64,000 nucleotides of DNA from Bacteroidales bacterium MB20-C3-3. GTDB taxonomy: Bacteria; Bacteroidota; Bacteroidia; Bacteroidales; UBA932. The stretch is taken from contig CP141202.1 of the NCBI GenBank assembly GCA_035609245.1, positions 1,798,001 to 1,862,000 of the forward strand. The letters run 5' to 3'. Under the pieces are notes generated by a model. It worked only from the letters and a program-made list of their open reading frames with translations. It had not been told where the DNA came from and made no database searches. The position numbers and the translations under genes were made by a program. Positions 55,168-64,000 of the stretch are shown here, piece by piece. Positions within the stretch are counted from its first letter, which is position 1; each line of letters opens with the position of its first letter.

Positions 55168-57237
55168 TTAATTTTTAAGCCATTTATCAAGCCATGAGTA
55201 GAATACCCTGTTCCATTGAATGCTGTTCTGTGGTTTTAGAATCCAGTGATTTTCACCAGGGAAGAGGAGTAATTCGGAAGGGACACCAAGTGCCTGAGCA
55301 GCATTAAATGCAGCCATTCCCTGATCTACAGGAACTCTGTAGTCCATTTCACCATGAGTAATGAGGATAGGCGTATCCCAGTTTTTCACAAGTTTGTGAG
55401 GTGAGCTTGCATAGTGCCTGTTGGCAACCGGGTTATTGTCCCATGGTGCACCACCGTTGTCCCAGTGCGGGAACCACATCTCTTCTGTGGTCATATACAT
55501 ATGCTCCTGATTGAAGATGCCGGCATGTGCAATAAATGCAGAAAACATACCTTTATGAATTCCGGCAAGGTAGAATACAGAATATCCACCGTAGCTAGCA
55601 CCCACAGCACCCACTTTACCCACAAATTTCTCCTTTTTCATCTCTTTAACTGAAGAGAAGTAATCTTGCATATTCAGGCCAGGATAGTCTCCTGAAATCT
55701 GATCTGTCCACTCCTGTCCAAAGGCGGTGGTTCCTCTTCTGTTTGGAAGGATAACTATATAGTCATTGGCAGCCATAAGCTGGAAGTTCCAGCGATATGA
55801 CCATCCCTGGCTAAGAGTTCCCTGTGGCCCTCCAAGGCAGAAGAGCAATGCAGGATAAACCTTTGTGGAGTCAAAACCCGGAGGATAGACAACCCACATA
55901 TGCATATCCTTATTATCAACAGTCTTAATCCATCTCTCCTCAACTCTTCCCATTGTTATCTGATCAAGGAGGTGCTTGTTCTCAAATGTAAGTTGAGAAA
56001 ATGTTCCATCAAGAGGGTTGATTGAAACAACTTCAACAGGCATTGACATGCTTTTGTATGTGCCCACAAGTTTATCCCCTGCAAGCTGTACACCATCAAA
56101 ATCAAACTGGTCCTGAACCACCTGCCTGATCTCCCTGTCTGCAAGATTTACAAGATATACACCTGTAAGAGCCTTTACACAAGATGTGAAATAGAGACCG
56201 GAGCCATCCGCCAGCCATGTAATTGACTCGGCATTATAAGGAAAATCTGTAGTTAGCTCAGTTTTTACCTTTGTCTCAATATCCATGATAAAGATTCTCT
56301 TTTTGTCTGCCTCAAACCCCGCTCTCTCCATTGATATCCAGGCAATAGTTTTACCATCAGGTGAGAAGAGCGGATCCGTGTCATAGCCCGGCATTCCATC
56401 AGTTATATTTTCGTGAGTCTTCTCAGCAATATTGTAAATATAAATATCTGTATTTGTAGAGAAAGCGTACTCTTTTCCGGTAAGTTTTCTGCTGGAGTAT
56501 GCAATTGAGAATCCATCAGGGCTCCAGTTCAGCTGGTCAATACCACCAAAAGGCAGTACAGGCAATTCATAAGGCTCATTCTCCAGTATATCTGTAATAT
56601 TGCTGAGCCCCTTGCCGTCAAAGTCAGCTATAAAAGTGTGGGGAATGGTTTCAACAAAATGATCCCAGTGTCTGTACATAAGATCTGAGTACATTCTTCC
56701 GTTTGCTTTGTCAAGATCCGGCCACAAATCCACAGCCTTTTTGTCAGCTTTAACATCGCTTACAAACATAATTTTACTCCCGTCAGGCGAAAAATCAAAT
56801 TCGTTTATCCCATTCTCGTAGTCGCTTACCTTTTTTGCACCAGTCCCGTCGGCTTTCATCATCCATAACTGTCCGCCTGAAAGGTATGCAATCTCGTTAC
56901 CGTTATTTATCCACCTTGCATTGTTCTCGCTGCCGGATGTGGTAGTAAGCTGCTTCTGATCAGAACCATCGGCGTTCATAACAAACAGTTCCCTGTTGTT
57001 TTTATTTTGAGGAATACTGGTATATGCTACCCCGTAAAGAATCTTTGAACCGTCCGGTGATACCTGAGGGTCTGATACCTTTCCCATACTATGCATCACT
57101 TCAGGAGTGAGTCTTCCCCCCTCAACTGTAATGTTGCTTTTTGTGATTAGCTCTTCCGGCTGCTTTCCGGAGTCTCCTCCGCAAGAGGCGGCAATTAAAG
57201 CAGTTGAAATTAACATAGTGAATAGTTTACTTTTCAT
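55168..57237 (-). CDS. S9 family dipeptidyl/acylaminoacyl-peptidase lipoprotein
   Basis: A lipoprotein signal (IAASCGGD, Cys19) precedes a PD40-type propeller (VSPDGSKILY, FSPDGSKIMF, FSPDGKTIAW repeats) and a catalytic domain with Ser in GASYGGYSVFYLA (about 550), acid in HGEMDYRVP and His in GENHWIL. It is 689 residues long and envelope-anchored. It lies 12 bp upstream of the second S9 gene, forming a two-gene peptide-degradation operon. Confidence 0.9.
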   Translation of the reverse strand: MKSKLFTMLISTALIAASCGGDSGKQPEELITKSNITVEGGRLTPEVMHSMGKVSDPQVSPDGSKILYGVAYTSIPQNKNNRELFVMNADGSDQKQLTTTSGSENNARWINNGNEIAYLSGGQLWMMKADGTGAKKVSDYENGINEFDFSPDGSKIMFVSDVKADKKAVDLWPDLDKANGRMYSDLMYRHWDHFVETIPHTFIADFDGKGLSNITDILENEPYELPVLPFGGIDQLNWSPDGFSIAYSSRKLTGKEYAFSTNTDIYIYNIAEKTHENITDGMPGYDTDPLFSPDGKTIAWISMERAGFEADKKRIFIMDIETKVKTELTTDFPYNAESITWLADGSGLYFTSCVKALTGVYLVNLADREIRQVVQDQFDFDGVQLAGDKLVGTYKSMSMPVEVVSINPLDGTFSQLTFENKHLLDQITMGRVEERWIKTVDNKDMHMWVVYPPGFDSTKVYPALLFCLGGPQGTLSQGWSYRWNFQLMAANDYIVILPNRRGTTAFGQEWTDQISGDYPGLNMQDYFSSVKEMKKEKFVGKVGAVGASYGGYSVFYLAGIHKGMFSAFIAHAGIFNQEHMYMTTEEMWFPHWDNGGAPWDNNPVANRHYASSPHKLVKNWDTPILITHGEMDYRVPVDQGMAAFNAAQALGVPSELLLFPGENHWILKPQNSIQWNRVFYSWLDKWLKN

Positions 57238-57328: not shown

Positions 57329-59344
57329 TTATAGGTTCAGCGAAAGCCCGACTTTTATCCACCGGCCCGGCTGAGGCAAATTTCCAAGGTAGAGGTAATC
57401 TGTGCCAAAGAGATTTGTCGCCTCAACGGATACCCTCCATTTTGGCTCACTCCAGACGACTTTTACATCTGCCAGGGCAAAAGATTTATAAGGTACCTCG
57501 GAAGAGTTTGGCCCGAGCCATGTTCCCTCTCTCTTTTGAAAACTCAGGTCCCACCTTGCAGAGAGTTTCCCAAAAATTTTATGGTCTGCGAAAGCAGTTG
57601 CCTTATGCCTGAGAAAGTCAGTGGCATAGAGCGAAAGCAGTCCGTCAGTTTTCTTTGAAACATCCAGAAATGCATAAGTCACACCTGCACTGTTCAGGAA
57701 TGAGTTTGTCCAGCTTCTGGTTACTGACACTTCAATGCCAGCCGTAATAACATTGGTAATGTTACTGGCCTGCCACTGGTCAGATCCGCTTGTCCTTGTC
57801 CAGTCAATAATGCTGAACCCATATCTGTAAAATCCCGACAGAGAGGCTCTGAGCCCCGATTTTGCATACCTCAGACCAAGCTGTCCCGATACAGCCTCCT
57901 CGGGTTTGAGATCCATATTCCCTGTCTGGTTGGGACTCTTGTAGTAGAGGTCGGTAAATGTAGGCTTTCTGAAAGAGTTGTTTACCCATGCGTTCGCCTC
58001 AAGATATGGTGATATGCTGTATGCAGCACTTGCACCGCCATAGATGCGCATGTTCTCTGCTACAAGCACACCTGCCGTGAATCTCCACTGTTCCATCTGA
58101 AGAATATGTTTAGCATAGGCCGATGGTGTCTGCCTGCTTTTGCTTCGCGTATACTGAGTCCCCTCCGGAGAGTAGTGCCCGCTCTCCCCCTCAATGGGAT
58201 CGCCAAGCACAGTACTGTAAATGTTTTCAAACCTGTATCCGGCACCAACGAGTGTTGTACCTGCTTTGCCCCAGCGTCTTGCTGCCTGAATATCTGCTCC
58301 GGCAACATCGCTGCGGTGGTAGTTGTGCCCCTGATACCACGGAGCCGCTTCATATCTGAAGAGTTCAAACCTGTCAAAATGCCTTCTGTGGTATGCAATA
58401 GCCTTAATTTGCCAGTAGCCGCTCCTGTATATGTACTGAAGGGATGATAGCCAAAGACTTGTCTCTTCAAATTGCTCCGGATATGCTGCTGTATAAAAGC
58501 TGTTAGCTCCGAATGCCTTATGCTGATATCCTGCCTGAGCATAAATCTTGTGCTTATTGCCCTTTGTTGCAAGAACACTGGTAAACAGATTCAGAATATC
58601 AAAGTCTGTATTATCTGAATAACCATCTGAGCGGCTATATCCTCCTCCCGCCTGGGCAGACAGATTCCATTTACCGTTGTTTTTTGCATATTGGAGATTT
58701 GCATCACCCTTGAAGTATCCGAACGAACCTCCGGTGAGGGCAAGTGATATTCCCTTTTTTGCAGGATTTTTTGTGATTATATTGATTGCACCGGCATATG
58801 CCACTGAGCCCTCTGACCAGGCCCCGGGTCCGTGCAGGATTTCAATCCTCTCAATCTGAGAGATCTCAACAGGAATATTAAGAGAGTGGTGTCCGGTTTG
58901 CGGGTCGGTATAGTTGACCCCGTTAATCATGACCATTGTCTGGTCAAATGTTCCTCCAAGAATGTTCAGATCAGACTGAACCCCTTCGCCTCCCCGTGTA
59001 CGGAGGTCGGTTCCCTGGAGATATCGCAACAGATCGGGGAGATTGTTTACCGCAGCCCGCTCAATCTCTGCCTGCTGAATTACTGCGACAACTCTTACCA
59101 GAGGCTGGAAGGGCGTGGGTCGTTCTGTATTGATTATTAATTCTTCAAGTGCGCGGATAGTGTCGTTTCCGCTTTTCTGGTTGCTCTGAGCCAGCAAGGG
59201 CTGACCATTCATCACTAAAATTGAGTAGGCGACAGAGAGGACACCAATCTTAATCACCTTTCCCAGGGAAGCAAAAGCCGCCCAGGGAGTCCGTTTCCAT
59301 CTTTTAAAACAGATGGGTTTGGTTTTTCTTTTGTTGTTGTACAT
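57329..59344 (-). CDS. TonB-dependent receptor (BtuB/FepA-like, no CarboxypepD domain)
   Basis: From ATG 59344 the protein has 671 residues with an extended signal (basic KRWKRTPWAAF, then IKIGVLSVAYSIL). It continues to a plug (AVIQQAEIERAAVNNLPDLLRYLQ, LNILGGTFDQTMVMINGV) and a 22-strand-type barrel with YLKSPNQTGN-like segments (here YYKSPNQTGNMDLKPEE) and ends in GRWIKVGLSLNL. It lacks the CarboxypepD_reg domain of SusC-type receptors. The gene is noticeably more G+C-rich than the A+T-rich surroundings. No cobalamin riboswitch is seen upstream. Its ligand is unknown. Confidence 0.88.
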   Translation of the reverse strand: MYNNKRKTKPICFKRWKRTPWAAFASLGKVIKIGVLSVAYSILVMNGQPLLAQSNQKSGNDTIRALEELIINTERPTPFQPLVRVVAVIQQAEIERAAVNNLPDLLRYLQGTDLRTRGGEGVQSDLNILGGTFDQTMVMINGVNYTDPQTGHHSLNIPVEISQIERIEILHGPGAWSEGSVAYAGAINIITKNPAKKGISLALTGGSFGYFKGDANLQYAKNNGKWNLSAQAGGGYSRSDGYSDNTDFDILNLFTSVLATKGNKHKIYAQAGYQHKAFGANSFYTAAYPEQFEETSLWLSSLQYIYRSGYWQIKAIAYHRRHFDRFELFRYEAAPWYQGHNYHRSDVAGADIQAARRWGKAGTTLVGAGYRFENIYSTVLGDPIEGESGHYSPEGTQYTRSKSRQTPSAYAKHILQMEQWRFTAGVLVAENMRIYGGASAAYSISPYLEANAWVNNSFRKPTFTDLYYKSPNQTGNMDLKPEEAVSGQLGLRYAKSGLRASLSGFYRYGFSIIDWTRTSGSDQWQASNITNVITAGIEVSVTRSWTNSFLNSAGVTYAFLDVSKKTDGLLSLYATDFLRHKATAFADHKIFGKLSARWDLSFQKREGTWLGPNSSEVPYKSFALADVKVVWSEPKWRVSVEATNLFGTDYLYLGNLPQPGRWIKVGLSLNL

Positions 59345-59371
59345 AAATTTAGTTTTTCTGTTGCGAAGGCG

Positions 59372-59404
59372 CAAAAATAGAAACTAAAAGGATGAGAGCA
59401 CAAA
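59372..59404 (-). promoter_or_regulatory. -33/-7 promoter for the TonB receptor
   Basis: Minus-strand TTTG (59401-59404) and TATTTTTG (59372-59379) are separated by 21 bp, a good match to the Bacteroidetes pattern. The following leader contains an imperfect hairpin (TAGTTT/AAACTA region, 59351-59386). Confidence 0.6.
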
Positions 59405-59413
59405 TAAAAATTG

Positions 59414-59421
59414 TAAATTTG
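59414..59421 (+). promoter_or_regulatory. -7 box TAAATTTG before the M20 amidohydrolase gene
   Basis: Exact TAnnTTTG match, 29 nt before ATG 59451. Divergent from the TonB receptor promoter. Confidence 0.4.
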
Positions 59422-59450
59422 ATTAATTAACCAGCAATGTCAATACCAGA

Positions 59451-60554
59451 ATGGAATCCCTAAATCTCGCCCTTGTCAGGGCAGAACTTCACTTAACTCC
59501 GGAATATTCCCACAAGGAGAATCTTACCGCAGATACCATACTCAGATATATCAGGGCAACTGAACCTGATGAGCTCTACACCGGAATTGGAGGGCATGGT
59601 ATTGTGGCCGGCTACAGGGGTGTCTGGCCGGGAGACTCGCTTATGTTCAGGTGTGAGATGGATGCCGTTCCAACAGAACATGGTCCGAACCACCTCTGCG
59701 GACATGATGGCCATATGGCAATCCTCATTGGTGTGGCAAATGTTATTTCAAAGGCACGGGACTACCCGGGTAAGGTGTGGCTCTTTTTTCAGCCTGCAGA
59801 GGAGATAGGAGAGGGGGCTGCCCGTATGGTGGTGGATATCTCAAAGCACAGAATCAGCTTTGATTACTCCTTTGCCCTGCATAACAATCCAAGACACGAA
59901 CTAAACAAGGTTATAATGTACAGCGATGTTTATGCGGCCGCATCTGTGGGAATGGAACTGCTCTTCTCAGGCTCGCCTTCACATGCTGCCTTCCCCGAGC
60001 AGGCTGCCAACCCAACCTACGCAATCATTAACATTGTGGAGGAGATTAAGCGGATGAACTCAGACAAAAGGCTTTTTCATAATTTTGTTCTGGGAACCGT
60101 GGTAAACGTTCATATTGGTGAGGCAAACTACGGAGTGACTCCCGGTTCGGGAATTATCAGGGTTACACTCAGAGCCTATGACGAGAATGATCTTAACCTC
60201 TTCTGCCGCAAGATAGAGAGCTTTGCAGGCGAAAAGGCATCGGCCTCCGGTCTTAAGGTAGATATAACATATCATGACCGCTTCCCCTCTACAAGAAATA
60301 ATGTACTTGCATCCAACATGGTACTTGAGGCTGCTCAAAAACTGGGAATTCCTGTTGAATGGGCTCAGGCCCCATCAAGAGGTTCGGAAGATTTTGCTCA
60401 CTTTACATCTATCTCAAAAGCCTGTTTCTTTGATATTGGAAACGGCAAGGAGAGCGATGATATTCACCGCGAAGGTTACAGGTTCTCGGATGAAATACTG
60501 GAACCTGCAGTAAGATTATACAGTTCAATAATTTATAACAGACAATCAAAATGA
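59451..60554 (+). CDS. M20 family amidohydrolase
   Basis: The 367-residue enzyme belongs to the M20D branch (IAA-amino acid hydrolase, hippuricase-like). Metal and catalytic residues appear in CEMDAVPT, CGHDGHMA (Cys83, His85, His88), QPAEEIGEG (Glu117-118), ALHNNPRH, and EDFAHFTS. The dimerisation domain is in the middle (YGVTPGSGIIRVTLRAY). It has no signal peptide. The substrate may be an N-acyl amino acid. It overlaps the nitroreductase gene by ATGA. An out-of-frame ATG at 59437 gives only a short peptide. Confidence 0.9.
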   Translation: MESLNLALVRAELHLTPEYSHKENLTADTILRYIRATEPDELYTGIGGHGIVAGYRGVWPGDSLMFRCEMDAVPTEHGPNHLCGHDGHMAILIGVANVISKARDYPGKVWLFFQPAEEIGEGAARMVVDISKHRISFDYSFALHNNPRHELNKVIMYSDVYAAASVGMELLFSGSPSHAAFPEQAANPTYAIINIVEEIKRMNSDKRLFHNFVLGTVVNVHIGEANYGVTPGSGIIRVTLRAYDENDLNLFCRKIESFAGEKASASGLKVDITYHDRFPSTRNNVLASNMVLEAAQKLGIPVEWAQAPSRGSEDFAHFTSISKACFFDIGNGKESDDIHREGYRFSDEILEPAVRLYSSIIYNRQSK

Positions 60555-61120
60555 ATTTCAGGAGTTTGACAATTGCACTTCTTGCATTAATCTTAACTAC
60601 ATCAGTTATGGCACAGACAACACCCGCAATTGAAAATATATTTGCCCGCAAAAGCGTTAGGCAATATACAGAACAGAAGGTAGAGCAGGCTACACTTGAG
60701 CTGCTCATAAAGGCCGGAATGGCTGCGCCTACAGGTATGAACAAACAGCCGTGGGAGTTCATTATTGTAACAGACAGGGCAATGCTTGAAAAATTTGCGG
60801 CACTTCTTCCATATGCAAAGATGGCTGCAAAGGCTCCTGCCGCCATTGTTGTGGCAGGAAATCCAAAGGTTTCTGAATACTGGTATCTCGACTGTTCAGC
60901 TGCAACGCAAAATATTCTGCTTGCTGCCGAATCCCTGGGCCTGGGAGCAGTATGGACTGCCGCATACCCCTATGAAAAGAATATGAACATCATTAAGGAG
61001 GTTCTTTCAATTCCGGAACCATACCTTCCACTTTGCCTGATTCCTCTTGGATATCCAAAGAGCGAAACAAAGGCAAAGGATAAATGGAAACCAGAAAAGG
61101 TACATCAGAACGGCTGGTAA
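60551..61120 (+). CDS. exported nitroreductase family protein
   Basis: This 189-residue protein has an unmistakable signal peptide (LLALILTTSVMAQ) in front of a nitroreductase domain: FARKSVRQYTEQKV (FMN phosphate contact), MAAPTGMNKQPWEF, and LGLGAVWTAAYP with LCLIPLGYPK near the end. A flavin enzyme in the periplasm is unusual and would need the cofactor loaded after export, unless the N-terminus is not cleaved. Coupled by ATGA to the M20 amidohydrolase. Confidence 0.85.
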   Translation: MNFRSLTIALLALILTTSVMAQTTPAIENIFARKSVRQYTEQKVEQATLELLIKAGMAAPTGMNKQPWEFIIVTDRAMLEKFAALLPYAKMAAKAPAAIVVAGNPKVSEYWYLDCSAATQNILLAAESLGLGAVWTAAYPYEKNMNIIKEVLSIPEPYLPLCLIPLGYPKSETKAKDKWKPEKVHQNGW

Positions 61121-61121
61121 G

Positions 61122-61226
61122 ATGAGAAAAACCCTCTCTCTGATAATCTTTGTCTTAGTCGCATCCACTCTTAAAGGTCAGATATACTCAGGCAGAGTTA
61201 CCGACAAAGAGGGGCGGGCGATTCCT
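61122..61226 (+). pseudogene. 5' remnant of a DUF5686-type gene
   Basis: The first 35 codons encode a signal peptide and the opening of a CarboxypepD_reg-like domain (IYSGRVTDKEGRAIP), closely similar to the start of the intact gene at 61931 (IFSGRVTDRRGEGIP). After that the reading frame runs into amidohydrolase sequence in the wrong frame and stops at 61313. It is a deletion joint, not an intact gene. Confidence 0.8.
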
Positions 61227-61934
61227 TTATATTCAGATGTGAAATGGACGCTGTGCCAACAGAGTCAGGTCCTGTTCATTTATGCGGACACGACGGACAC
61301 ATGGCTGTGCTGATCGGCCTGGCAGAGGAGGTGGGAGAGGGAGCATCACTAATGGTAGCTGAACTCTCACGCCTGAGAGTGAATTTTGACTATGCATTTG
61401 CTCTTCATAACAAACCAAATAAAGAGCTTAATAAAATTCTGATGTACAAAAATGTCTATGCTGCATATCAGAGATTTTGCACTGGGCACTGTTATAAATG
61501 TGCATATTGGTGATGCAAATTATGGCTTTACACCGGGAACAGGAGCAATCAGAGCTACTTTAAGGGCATACGACGAGATGGATCTCAATCTTTTCTGTAG
61601 AAGAATTGAAACATTTGCGAGGGAAAAATCAGCAAAAGCTATGTTAAATGTTGAGATTACTTATCATGATAGATTTCCTGCTACAACTAACAATGCTTTT
61701 GCCTGCAGTATGGTGGAGGAGAATGCAAAAAAACTGGGTATGAATTTTGAATACTCAAAATCTCCGGAAAGAGGATCTGAGGACTTTGCCCATTTTGCCA
61801 GTATATCTAAAGCTTGCTTTTTTGATATTGGCAATGGATTTGACGGAGACGATATTCACAGGGAGGGTTACAAGTTTAATGATTCAATACTTGAAAGTGC
61901 ACTTAGATTATACTACACAATAATATTCAAATGA
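61227..61934 (+). pseudogene. degraded second copy of the M20 amidohydrolase
   Basis: Reading across frames the sequence matches the intact M20 gene from about its residue 66 (FRCEMDAVPTESGP, LCGHDGHMAVLIGLA), but 20 residues between GVA and EEIGEGA are deleted in frame. Later about 50 residues are lost with a frameshift at VYAA, after which the last open segment (from 61452) resumes as DFALGTVINVHIGDANYGF and goes to YYTIIFK. The N-terminal third is missing. The last codon overlaps the DUF5686 start by ATGA, so the original operon order is preserved. Confidence 0.85.
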
Positions 61935-64000
61935 CATCTTACCCTAAGAGCCTCTCTAAACTTCTCTTGTTGCTGATTTTTACATTCTGCGTTTACCGGT
62001 TAAATGCTCAAATATTTTCAGGGAGGGTAACAGACAGAAGAGGTGAGGGTATCCCATTTGCTACTGTATATATACATGAACTTAAGTCCGGAATAAGTGC
62101 GGACTTAAACGGCGAGTTTCTCTCAAAGTTATCCCCCGGGAGATACACACTGGAAGCCTCCTCACTTGGTTTTAAAAGGGAGCAGTTTGTTGTTGAAATG
62201 GGTAATATAAACTTATACAGAACTTTAGTCCTTGAAGAGATCTCTTATGAGCTTAACGAGGCCCTTTTTTCAGGCAGAAGAGATGACAGAGGGAGTGTGA
62301 TTATGAGAAAAGCAATAGCCAAAGCGCCCTATTTCAAGTACCAGGTCAGAGAATATGATGCAGATAGTTATCTCAAGGGAACTTTTAAGATAACCAAGGT
62401 GCCGGCCCTGCTTAAACTCAAGTCAATGAAGGATAAGGTGAATCTCTTCACCGGGAAGTTGTTTCTTCTTGAGTCTTTTTCAACAGTAAAGTTCTCCTTT
62501 CCGGATAAATATGAGCATACTATAAAAGCCTTTTCAAGTACAATCCCTGATGAGATTAGCCCCGGTGATTACTCTGTGCTTATGAAATCCTCAATTTACG
62601 ATCCTCAGATATTTGGACTTGTATCACCTTTGTCTCCAAAAGCATTTTCTTATTATAAATTTATTTACCAGGGGGTATCAAATGAATCAGGCAGAGTAGT
62701 CAACAAGATTCTGGTTGTCCCAAAAAGGGGGAATTCGAAACTTTTTGCAGGAACACTTTATATTGTTGATAATATGTGGAGTGTCTCATACGCAGAGTTA
62801 GTCTCTGAGCAATCGGGAATTAAGACAAACATAAAGGTAAACTATAATGAGGTGGCAGACGAAGTTTTTCTTCCAACAACATATAACATTAATGCATCAA
62901 TTGATGTTATGGGAGTTAAAGGGGAGGGACGGTTTTACTCATCAATGAAATATACAAATCTTAAAAGGAACTCAGCCACTATCTCAAATCCTGTCACTCA
63001 GGTTAAACCAGTCGTAAAGGAGAGGAGTCTTGAAATTAAAGAGACTCCATCAAATACAACAGTTAAGGTAGACTCCTCTGCCAATAAAAGAGACTCGGCC
63101 TATTGGCTTGAAGTAAGAAAGGTGCCTCTCAGGGTTGATGAGGTTGTCTCTTACCAGAAATCCGATAGCATCAAGATTGAGTTCAGGGAGATAGAAAAGA
63201 GGGATTCTGTAAAAAATCAGAATAGTGGTAAAGGAGGCTCAGCACTTGAGCAAATTTTGTTTGGACATAAATATAAAGTTTCAAAAGATCTCTTTTTTTC
63301 ATTCGGGGGTCTTTCAAAAGTTGTAGGAGATTTTAATTTCGTTGACGGATACCAGTTGGGGCAGAATATTTCTATCAATTATAACGCTATAAAATTTACC
63401 CCTTTGAAATTTGATGCATCTGCATACTACTCACTTCAAAGAAGGCTTATGTTGTGGAGTACATCGCTAAGTGTGAGACATTCTCCGCTAAAAAATGGTT
63501 TTGTGAATATATCTGCAGGAAGAGAAAGCTCAGACATCAGTGATAACCCGGGGGTAAACAGGTTTATTAATTCATACTCATCCTGGTTATTTGCAATAAA
63601 CCCTGTTAAACTGATGGATAAAAAATATTTTGAAATAACAACAGGGATTGATATTGCAAACGGGCTGCAATCATCTGTATCTATTGCTCATAATACCTAT
63701 TCACAACTTGTAAATGGTGATTATAAAAGTCTTTTTGGTGCCCTCCCGGAGTTAAATATTCCCGAGAATATATATGGAGGAGAGGTTCTTAACTTATCCT
63801 CATTTATGGCATCGGCTTCTCTGCAATTTACTCCAAGGTATTATTACAAAATTGATAATGGATACAAGAGGTATGTAAAGTCTTCATATCCCACATTTAC
63901 GGTTAAGTTCATAAAGGCTTTCAAAGGTTTTAATGCACAATCATCCTGGTCAAGGTTAGAGACAGGCATCAGGCAAAAAATTAAAACAGACATATACTCT
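61931..64000 (+). CDS. DUF5686 outer-membrane protein with CarboxypepD_reg domain, 3' cut by window
   Basis: An uninterrupted frame of 690 codons starts at ATG 61931 (ATGA overlap with the M20 remnant) and runs past the window edge. Domains: signal peptide, CarboxypepD_reg-like domain (about 30-100; IFSGRVTDRRGEGIPFATV, LSPGRYTLEASSLGF), then DUF5686 with KLFAGTLYIVDNMWSVSYAE and a growing number of beta strands expected of an outer-membrane barrel. Function unknown. It shares the domain type with the 18437 gene, which lacks the first domain. Confidence 0.85.
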   Translation, partial: MTSYPKSLSKLLLLLIFTFCVYRLNAQIFSGRVTDRRGEGIPFATVYIHELKSGISADLNGEFLSKLSPGRYTLEASSLGFKREQFVVEMGNINLYRTLVLEEISYELNEALFSGRRDDRGSVIMRKAIAKAPYFKYQVREYDADSYLKGTFKITKVPALLKLKSMKDKVNLFTGKLFLLESFSTVKFSFPDKYEHTIKAFSSTIPDEISPGDYSVLMKSSIYDPQIFGLVSPLSPKAFSYYKFIYQGVSNESGRVVNKILVVPKRGNSKLFAGTLYIVDNMWSVSYAELVSEQSGIKTNIKVNYNEVADEVFLPTTYNINASIDVMGVKGEGRFYSSMKYTNLKRNSATISNPVTQVKPVVKERSLEIKETPSNTTVKVDSSANKRDSAYWLEVRKVPLRVDEVVSYQKSDSIKIEFREIEKRDSVKNQNSGKGGSALEQILFGHKYKVSKDLFFSFGGLSKVVGDFNFVDGYQLGQNISINYNAIKFTPLKFDASAYYSLQRRLMLWSTSLSVRHSPLKNGFVNISAGRESSDISDNPGVNRFINSYSSWLFAINPVKLMDKKYFEITTGIDIANGLQSSVSIAHNTYSQLVNGDYKSLFGALPELNIPENIYGGEVLNLSSFMASASLQFTPRYYYKIDNGYKRYVKSSYPTFTVKFIKAFKGFNAQSSWSRLETGIRQKIKTDIYS

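What the first reader, a model, noticed from the sequence alone, without database searches (positions are those of the whole stretch)
61122..61934. Deletion scar fuses a DUF5686 start to a decaying M20 copy
The first 35 codons of a DUF5686 gene are joined to the M20 sequence from about residue 66, and the M20 copy has two further deletions. The intact M20-nitroreductase unit precedes it, and an intact DUF5686 gene follows. The pattern implies a past duplication of an M20-to-DUF5686 block followed by collapse; CTTTAT at the joint resembles the M20 sequence there.
Basis: seen in the sequence. Interest (0 to 1): 0.55.

Follow-up and report, generated by a model that had tools for sequence, protein, structure and literature searches.

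The report
Operon swap scar between bacterial species
A short stretch of broken genes in an uncultured Bacteroidales bacterium is most likely not a collapsed duplication: a relative's DNA overwrote the front of an operon, broke off inside one gene, and left the bacterium's own older gene copy decaying beside the new one.

Summary
61122-61226 is the first 35 codons of a DUF5686 gene, joined at 61216-61226 to an M20 gene from about residue 63-66. That M20 remnant (M20b) has two more deletions, of 60 and 134 nt. A second genome of the same species carries the same scar, so an assembly error is unlikely.

The duplication reading fails. The nearest relatives, G012 and G022, have M20-DUF5686 without nitroreductase; G020 and G007 have M20-nitroreductase-DUF5686. 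M20b and the downstream DUF5686 group with G012/G022. The intact M20, the nitroreductase and the 35-codon DUF5686 stub go with G020. An AU test rejects the two M20 copies as sisters (p = 4.7e-5). Synonymous divergence from G020 is 0.34-0.45 in receptor, intact M20 and nitroreductase, and 0.69-0.83 in 22 other comparisons. Most likely, DNA from a G020-like species replaced the front of the operon. The left crossover was homologous, inside the TonB-receptor gene near 58900; the right end was an illegitimate join inside M20b. This restored a nitroreductase that the lineage had lost. The closest known process is homology-facilitated illegitimate recombination (HFIR). Well resolved, but of a known kind.

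The parts
57329..59374 (-). TonB-dependent receptor gene, mosaic; its 5' part (about 58900-59374) lies in the acquired tract
   Evidence: Pfam PF00593/PF07715; informative sites switch sides along it
58500..58899 (.). Patch inside the receptor gene with the native (G012/G022-like) alleles
   Evidence: 16 of 19 informative sites match G012/G022
58900..61226 (.). Acquired tract from a G020-like lineage; left edge approximate, between the last native-type sites (bin 58800-58899) and the first donor-type sites (bin 58900-58999)
   Evidence: from 58900 to 60560, 131 of 137 informative sites match G020/G007, 1 matches G012/G022, 5 match neither; 86-97% nt identity to G020 in the nine 250-nt bins from 59001; in the six of these where G012 and G022 align they have 67-77%, except 88% for G022 at 59001
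59451..60554 (+). M20a, intact M20-family amidohydrolase, foreign (G020-like)
   Evidence: 98% aa to G020, 66-67% to G012; tree 99/98 with G020; pS 0.34
60551..61120 (+). Nitroreductase-family gene, foreign; no homologue at E <= 1e-10 found in G012 or G022
   Evidence: 99% aa to G020
61122..61226 (+). First 35 codons of the donor's DUF5686 gene
   Evidence: 90% nt to G020 DUF5686 5' end; alignment
61216..61226 (.). Illegitimate joint between donor DUF5686 and native M20b
   Evidence: alignments on both sides
61227..61931 (+). M20b remnant, the native M20 gene from residue ~65, with 60-nt (61321/61322) and 134-nt (61465/61466) deletions
   Evidence: groups with G012/G022 at 98/98; deletions
61452..61934 (+). 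160-aa open frame left from the 3' part of M20b; overlaps the DUF5686 start by 4 bases (ATGA)
   Evidence: same 4-base overlap of M20 and DUF5686 in G012 and G022
61931..64000 (+). Native, intact DUF5686 gene (runs on beyond the window; 829 aa in the genome)
   Evidence: PF18939; groups with G012/G022, SH-aLRT 100

Best explanation
The genus mostly carries a divergent TonB-receptor gene next to an M20-nitroreductase-DUF5686 operon. The lineage of this genome and of G012/G022 had lost the nitroreductase, leaving M20 and DUF5686 overlapping by ATGA. Later, DNA from a G020-like species entered this species. One end recombined by homology inside the conserved 5' part of the receptor gene (near 58900). 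The other end, 35 codons into the donor's DUF5686 gene, was joined at a patch of little homology to codon ~64 of the resident M20 gene. The swap put in a complete foreign M20 and nitroreductase, kept the native DUF5686, and left the 3' part of the native M20 as a pseudogene, which then took two deletions. Shown: the chimaeric ancestry, its approximate edges, the absence of nitroreductase at the locus in the sisters, and the same scar in a second genome. Inferred: that it was one HFIR-type event, that uptake was by transformation, and that the nitroreductase was what selection kept.
For: Gene orders in the genus. Sliding identity and informative sites. M20 tree of 23 rows with M20b in G012/G022 (98/98) and M20a with G020 (99/98). 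DUF5686 with G012/G022 (SH-aLRT 100); rpoB puts the species with G022/G012 (99). AU test against M20a+M20b as sisters p = 4.7e-5, and against M20a with G012/G022 and M20b p = 0.0044. pS to G020 0.34/0.45/0.44 in M20a, nitroreductase and receptor, against 0.69-0.83 in 22 other comparisons. The 105-nt DUF5686 stub is 90% identical to G020. Same scar in G060. G020 and G022 share a 38-nt exact block at 58974, beside the left edge. ComEC and DprA family genes are present.
Against: Forcing M20b together with M20a, G020 and G007 is not rejected at 0.05 (AU p = 0.096), so M20b's place rests on the free tree (98/98), on its highest identity, 76% to G012, and on its linkage to DUF5686. The tract is not one clean block: 58500-58899 is native and 57700-58499 is donor-like again, and over the whole receptor gene G007 is closer at synonymous sites (pS 0.36) than G020 (0.44), so more than one exchange may have happened. 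One of the two distant 20-kb stretches does not separate G012/G022 from the others. The original bases of M20b at the joint are gone, so the microhomology there cannot be measured. Insertion followed by deletion gives the same product.
Confidence: 0.86

Rival explanations
1. Two-step version: the foreign M20-nitroreductase-DUF5686 block was first inserted whole beside the native M20-DUF5686 (a tandem of unlike copies), then a deletion removed the stretch from codon 35 of the foreign DUF5686 to codon ~64 of the native M20.
For: The remnant took two other deletions, one of which differs by a base between the two genomes of the species, so deletions do occur here.
Against: Needs an extra step; no tandem was seen in the 23 genus genomes read, three of them only in part.
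Confidence: 0.3
2. One reading: an M20-to-DUF5686 block duplicated within this lineage and then collapsed.
For: Two M20-derived sequences and two DUF5686 starts lie in a row.
Against: The copies are not sisters (AU p = 4.7e-5). The unit with nitroreductase is far closer to G020 at synonymous sites than the other genes compared. The two halves have different nearest relatives.
Confidence: 0.03
3. Ancient tandem paralogues (a and b) in the common ancestor, with G012/G022 losing a, G020/G007 losing b, and this genome keeping both in part; no transfer.
For: Would also give M20a with G020/G007 and M20b with G012/G022.
Against: M20a and the nitroreductase would then be as diverged from G020 at synonymous sites as other genes are; they are not (0.34-0.45 against 0.69-0.83).
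Confidence: 0.04
4. The remnant is kept by selection, either as a short protein or as a translated lead that couples ribosomes into DUF5686.
For: The 160-aa frame is open in both genomes and keeps the 4-base overlap with DUF5686 found in G012 and G022. Its branch is not longer than its sisters'.
Against: G060 has one base fewer at the first deletion, so the upstream part is not conserved as protein. M20b breaks 4 of 75 columns that are invariant in 20 intact M20s, against 0-2 in the 7 intact rows tested in the same way. The first ~64 codons and ~45 central codons are missing.
Confidence: 0.15

Closest known systems
Homology-facilitated illegitimate recombination (HFIR) in transformation (PMC3240628, passages read)
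   Same: One homologous end and one illegitimate end; recipient DNA is lost at the joint.
   Different: Here it is inferred from comparison, not observed. The acquired part from the M20a start to the joint is about 1.8 kb, against the ~1 kb average insertion quoted there. The joint's microhomology cannot be measured.
Sequential displacement of T6SS effector genes in Vibrio, with leftover immunity genes (PMC5361080, passages read)
   Same: A horizontally acquired gene pair displaces a resident gene and leaves resident sequence downstream; those authors also suggest HFIR.
   Different: No toxin or immunity genes here; the leftover is a broken enzyme gene plus an intact native neighbour, not a kept immunity gene.
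Mosaic operons by gene displacement in situ (a concept I recall; one search gave listings only)
   Same: Members of one operon have different ancestries through replacement at the native place.
   Different: Here the displaced native gene is still visible as a remnant, together with a stub of the donor's next gene.
Mosaic outcomes of natural transformation in Bacillus subtilis (PMC13344027, passages read)
   Same: Donor segments interrupted by recipient sequence over short distances, as at 57700-59000.
   Different: Experimental single-round transformants there; natural and possibly several rounds here.

Membership tests
HFIR event | One end joined by homologous recombination | tested here: met
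   Switch of informative sites at about 58900 inside a conserved part of the receptor gene; 38-nt exact G020-G022 block at 58974. Inferred from pattern; the crossover itself is not seen
HFIR event | Other end joined without homology | tested here: met
   Codon 35 of DUF5686 joined to codon ~64 of M20
HFIR event | 3-10 bp microhomology at the illegitimate joint | tested here: inconclusive
   The recipient's own bases are lost; in register, 6 of 10 bases agree between G020 and the proxy G022, longest run 2, counted by eye
HFIR event | Recipient DNA deleted at the joint | tested here: met
   The first ~64 codons of native M20b are not at the joint; no further M20 match in the genome at E <= 1e-20, a cut-off that a 64-codon piece might miss
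HFIR event | RecA-dependent uptake of linear DNA | not testable with these tools
   ComEC-family gene in 23 of 25 genus genomes, DprA-family gene in the own genome; both are common and no proof of competence
Tandem duplication followed by collapse | The two copies are each other's closest relatives | tested here: not met
   AU p = 4.7e-5; tree
M20 peptidase/amidohydrolase (M20b remnant as an active member) | Complete catalytic and dimerisation domains | tested here: not met
   First ~64 codons, 20 codons and ~45 codons are missing, with a frameshift
M20 amidohydrolase (M20a) | Match over the curated cut-off | tested here: met
   PF01546 90 bits against 24.6; TIGR01891 155 against 153.75

The most novel reading that the evidence does not exclude
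The lineage lost the nitroreductase from this operon and regained it from a sister species in one HFIR-type event. The 3' remnant of the displaced M20 gene was then kept because its translation feeds ribosomes through the ATGA overlap into the surviving native DUF5686 gene, so that the fossil became a translational adaptor.
Probability: 0.13. Interest if true: 0.5.

Novelty: new member of a known kind. Interest (0 to 1): 0.3.

Why it matters
Replacement of genes by a relative's version often leaves no trace but conflicting trees. Here both edges of one swap can be read: a homologous edge, an illegitimate edge, a stub of the donor's next gene, and the decaying native gene. It shows how an operon can lose a gene and get it back from a sister species, and how what looks like a collapsed duplication can be a transfer scar. 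That matters for automated counts of duplications and pseudogenes.

Tried and rejected
Duplication and collapse within the lineage: rejected by the trees and the AU test. Ancient paralogy with differential loss: disfavoured by synonymous divergence. Assembly error: made unlikely by G060. A second copy of the scar in the genome: none found (one search gave only the scar itself and M20a). A functional short M20: rejected by the missing parts.

Results against my reading or neutral: the AU test that holds M20b with M20a, G020 and G007 gave p = 0.096. The receptor gene is mosaic, so the tract is not one block, and it is closer to G007 (pS 0.36) than to G020 (0.44). The stretch does not separate the relatives (longest pieces 74-76% to all five other species). 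M20b shows no long branch (0.22 against 0.20 and 0.26 in G012 and G022), so decay is mainly by deletion and young. pS near 0.75 is saturated, so those values are lower limits. NCBIfam gave no hit for the DUF5686 gene.

Limits and rows dropped: G008 (split contigs) was left out of the M20 tree, which also warned of long rows G005, G018 and G019; G008, G005 and G060 were left out, where 7 of the 20 intact rows were tested one by one; the DUF5686 tree kept only rows over 500 aa. G020, G060 and G014 had no rpoB match, so G020's place in the species tree was not tested by rpoB; its kinship to G007 rests on the DUF5686 tree. In one search the frames came from six stretches of this genome, but counterparts in G020 had been fetched only for the locus and for parts of two of them. 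The 80 named loci were not examined for gene order. G002 and G004 were not fetched.

Literature: no paper in the held library has the word DUF5686. Searches for a xenologous replacement with a pseudogene remnant and for illegitimate recombination with microhomology in Bacteroidetes gave no papers. These are narrow word searches and do not show that nothing is in print.

Full report
What is there. The window lies at 1798001-1862000 of a single-contig genome of 2.38 Mb. Genes in order: S9 peptidase (-), TonB-dependent receptor (-), M20a (+), nitroreductase (+), a 35-codon DUF5686 stub, the M20b remnant, DUF5686 (+), then in the genome PurN-like (-) and FabF-like (+) (the names PurN and FabF are recalled from the sequences, not from a family search).

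The scar. 61122-61226 is the 5' end of a DUF5686 gene, 90% identical to G020 over 105 nt. At 61216-61226 it passes into M20 sequence. Aligned with G012, G022 and M20a, the remnant lacks 60 nt after 61321 and 134 nt after 61465. The second genome of the species, G060, shares the joint and the second deletion, and has one base fewer at the first, with a base change beside it. The joint is therefore present in both genomes seen, while the remnant is still changing.

Gene order in the genus. I read the locus in 23 of the 25 genus genomes; G002 and G004 had no M20 match at E <= 1e-20 and were not fetched. M20-nitroreductase-DUF5686 order is found in 17 of 23, this species' two genomes with their remnant included. 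One contig (G003) ends inside the nitroreductase. G012 and G022 have M20-DUF5686 with no nitroreductase. G010 and G006 have neither nitroreductase nor DUF5686 there. G005 has only a distant M20 in the stretch read. A nitroreductase match at E <= 1e-10 is found in 19 of 25 genomes, one of them weak (G004, 33% identity), and in none of G012, G022, G010, G006, G005 and G002. In G012 and G022 the locus itself is contiguous without the gene, and M20 overlaps DUF5686 by 4 bases, as the M20b remnant does here.

Two ancestries side by side. By rpoB this species groups with G022 and G012 (SH-aLRT 99). Of two distant 20-kb stretches, one agrees: 77-78% nt to G012 and G022 against 68-75% to G020, G007 and G021 in pieces over 600 nt. 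The other does not separate them: the longest pieces are 74-76% to all five. In contrast, 59001-61226 is 86-97% identical to G020 in 250-nt bins, while the four full bins inside M20a are 67-70% to G012 and G022. In the M20 tree the intact copy groups with G020 (99/98) and the remnant with G012 and G022 (98/98). The downstream DUF5686 groups with G012 and G022 (SH-aLRT 100). Holding the two M20 copies of this genome together costs 64.9 log units (AU p = 4.7e-5); holding M20a with G012, G022 and M20b costs 25.6 (p = 0.0044); holding M20b with G020, G007 and M20a costs 9.5 and is not rejected (p = 0.096).

Timing at synonymous sites. Between this genome and G020, the proportion of synonymous sites that differ is 0.34 in M20a, 0.45 in the nitroreductase and 0.44 in the receptor gene. 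In the other 22 of 25 comparisons (18 open frames from two distant stretches, and S9, PurN-like, DUF5686 and the M20b frame) it is 0.69-0.83, which is saturation. The unit with the nitroreductase thus separated from G020's more recently than those other genes did. Against G007 the receptor is at 0.36, M20a at 0.62 and nitroreductase at 0.57. The direction is given by the stub: it is a G020-like DUF5686 start inside this genome, while G020's own operon is whole and its DUF5686 groups with G007's.

Edges. At sites where G020 and G007 agree and differ from agreeing G012 and G022 (201 sites), this genome sides with G020/G007 at 131 and with G012/G022 at 1 of 137 from 58900 on (5 match neither); at 3 and 16 of 19 in 58500-58899; and at 41 and 4 of 45 in 57700-58499 (my tally of its printed rows). 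The left edge thus lies near 58900, in the conserved 5' part of the receptor gene, where G020 and G022 share a 38-nt exact block at 58974. G020 carries between receptor and S9 gene a cluster with S24-like peptidase, ABC transporter and nucleotidyltransferase that is absent here and in G012; if the donor had it, the donor DNA that stayed did not reach past it. The right edge has no extended homology: DUF5686 codon 35 against M20 codon ~64.

How it probably happened. One homologous and one illegitimate end with loss of recipient DNA is the pattern of HFIR; the passages I read describe 3-10 bp microhomology at the illegitimate joint in most cases (PMC3240628). PMC5361080 suggests the same for displaced effector genes in Vibrio. 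Discontinuous donor segments like those in the receptor gene are reported for transformation (PMC13344027). ComEC-family genes are in 23 of 25 genus genomes and a DprA-family gene in this one, which permits but does not show transformation. Insertion followed by deletion gives the same end product and cannot be excluded.

State of the remnant. M20b breaks 4 of 75 columns invariant in 20 intact M20s (three of the four changes among I, V and M, one V to F); seven intact rows tested in the same way break 0-2. Its branch is no longer than its sisters'. So it evolved under constraint until recently and has since lost parts by deletion. Its 160-aa frame is open in both genomes and still overlaps the DUF5686 start; whether that matters for translation is untested.

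Judgement. The finding is real and now explained: a transfer scar from an operon swap between species of one genus, with loss and regain of a nitroreductase. It is a clear natural case of a known kind of event rather than a new system.

Noticed in passing
55168-57237 (-): The S9 peptidase gene is unusually close to G012 (96% aa, pS 0.41) where the other G012 comparisons give pS 0.62-0.87, so it may be another recent exchange, with the G012 lineage.
   Followed up: partly
57329-59374 (-): The TonB-receptor gene is a patchwork of alleles from at least two lineages. G007 and G022 also share a 125-nt exact block in the stretches compared that is not in the window. The locus looks like a recombination hot spot.
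   Followed up: partly
L053:7395-13153: G020 carries between receptor and S9 gene a cluster of S24-like peptidase, a protein without Pfam match, ABC transporter, PF14907 nucleotidyltransferase and a fimbrillin-like/Fib_succ_major protein. G007 and G011 have similar genes next to the receptor, judged by eye. It resembles a peptide-maturation cluster, by recall only.
   Followed up: partly
61452-61934: Open 160-aa frame kept in both genomes of the species, overlapping the next gene by ATGA.
   Followed up: partly
G010 and G006 (L063, L064): Both nitroreductase and DUF5686 are missing at the locus; M20 is followed directly by the PurN-like gene.
   Followed up: no
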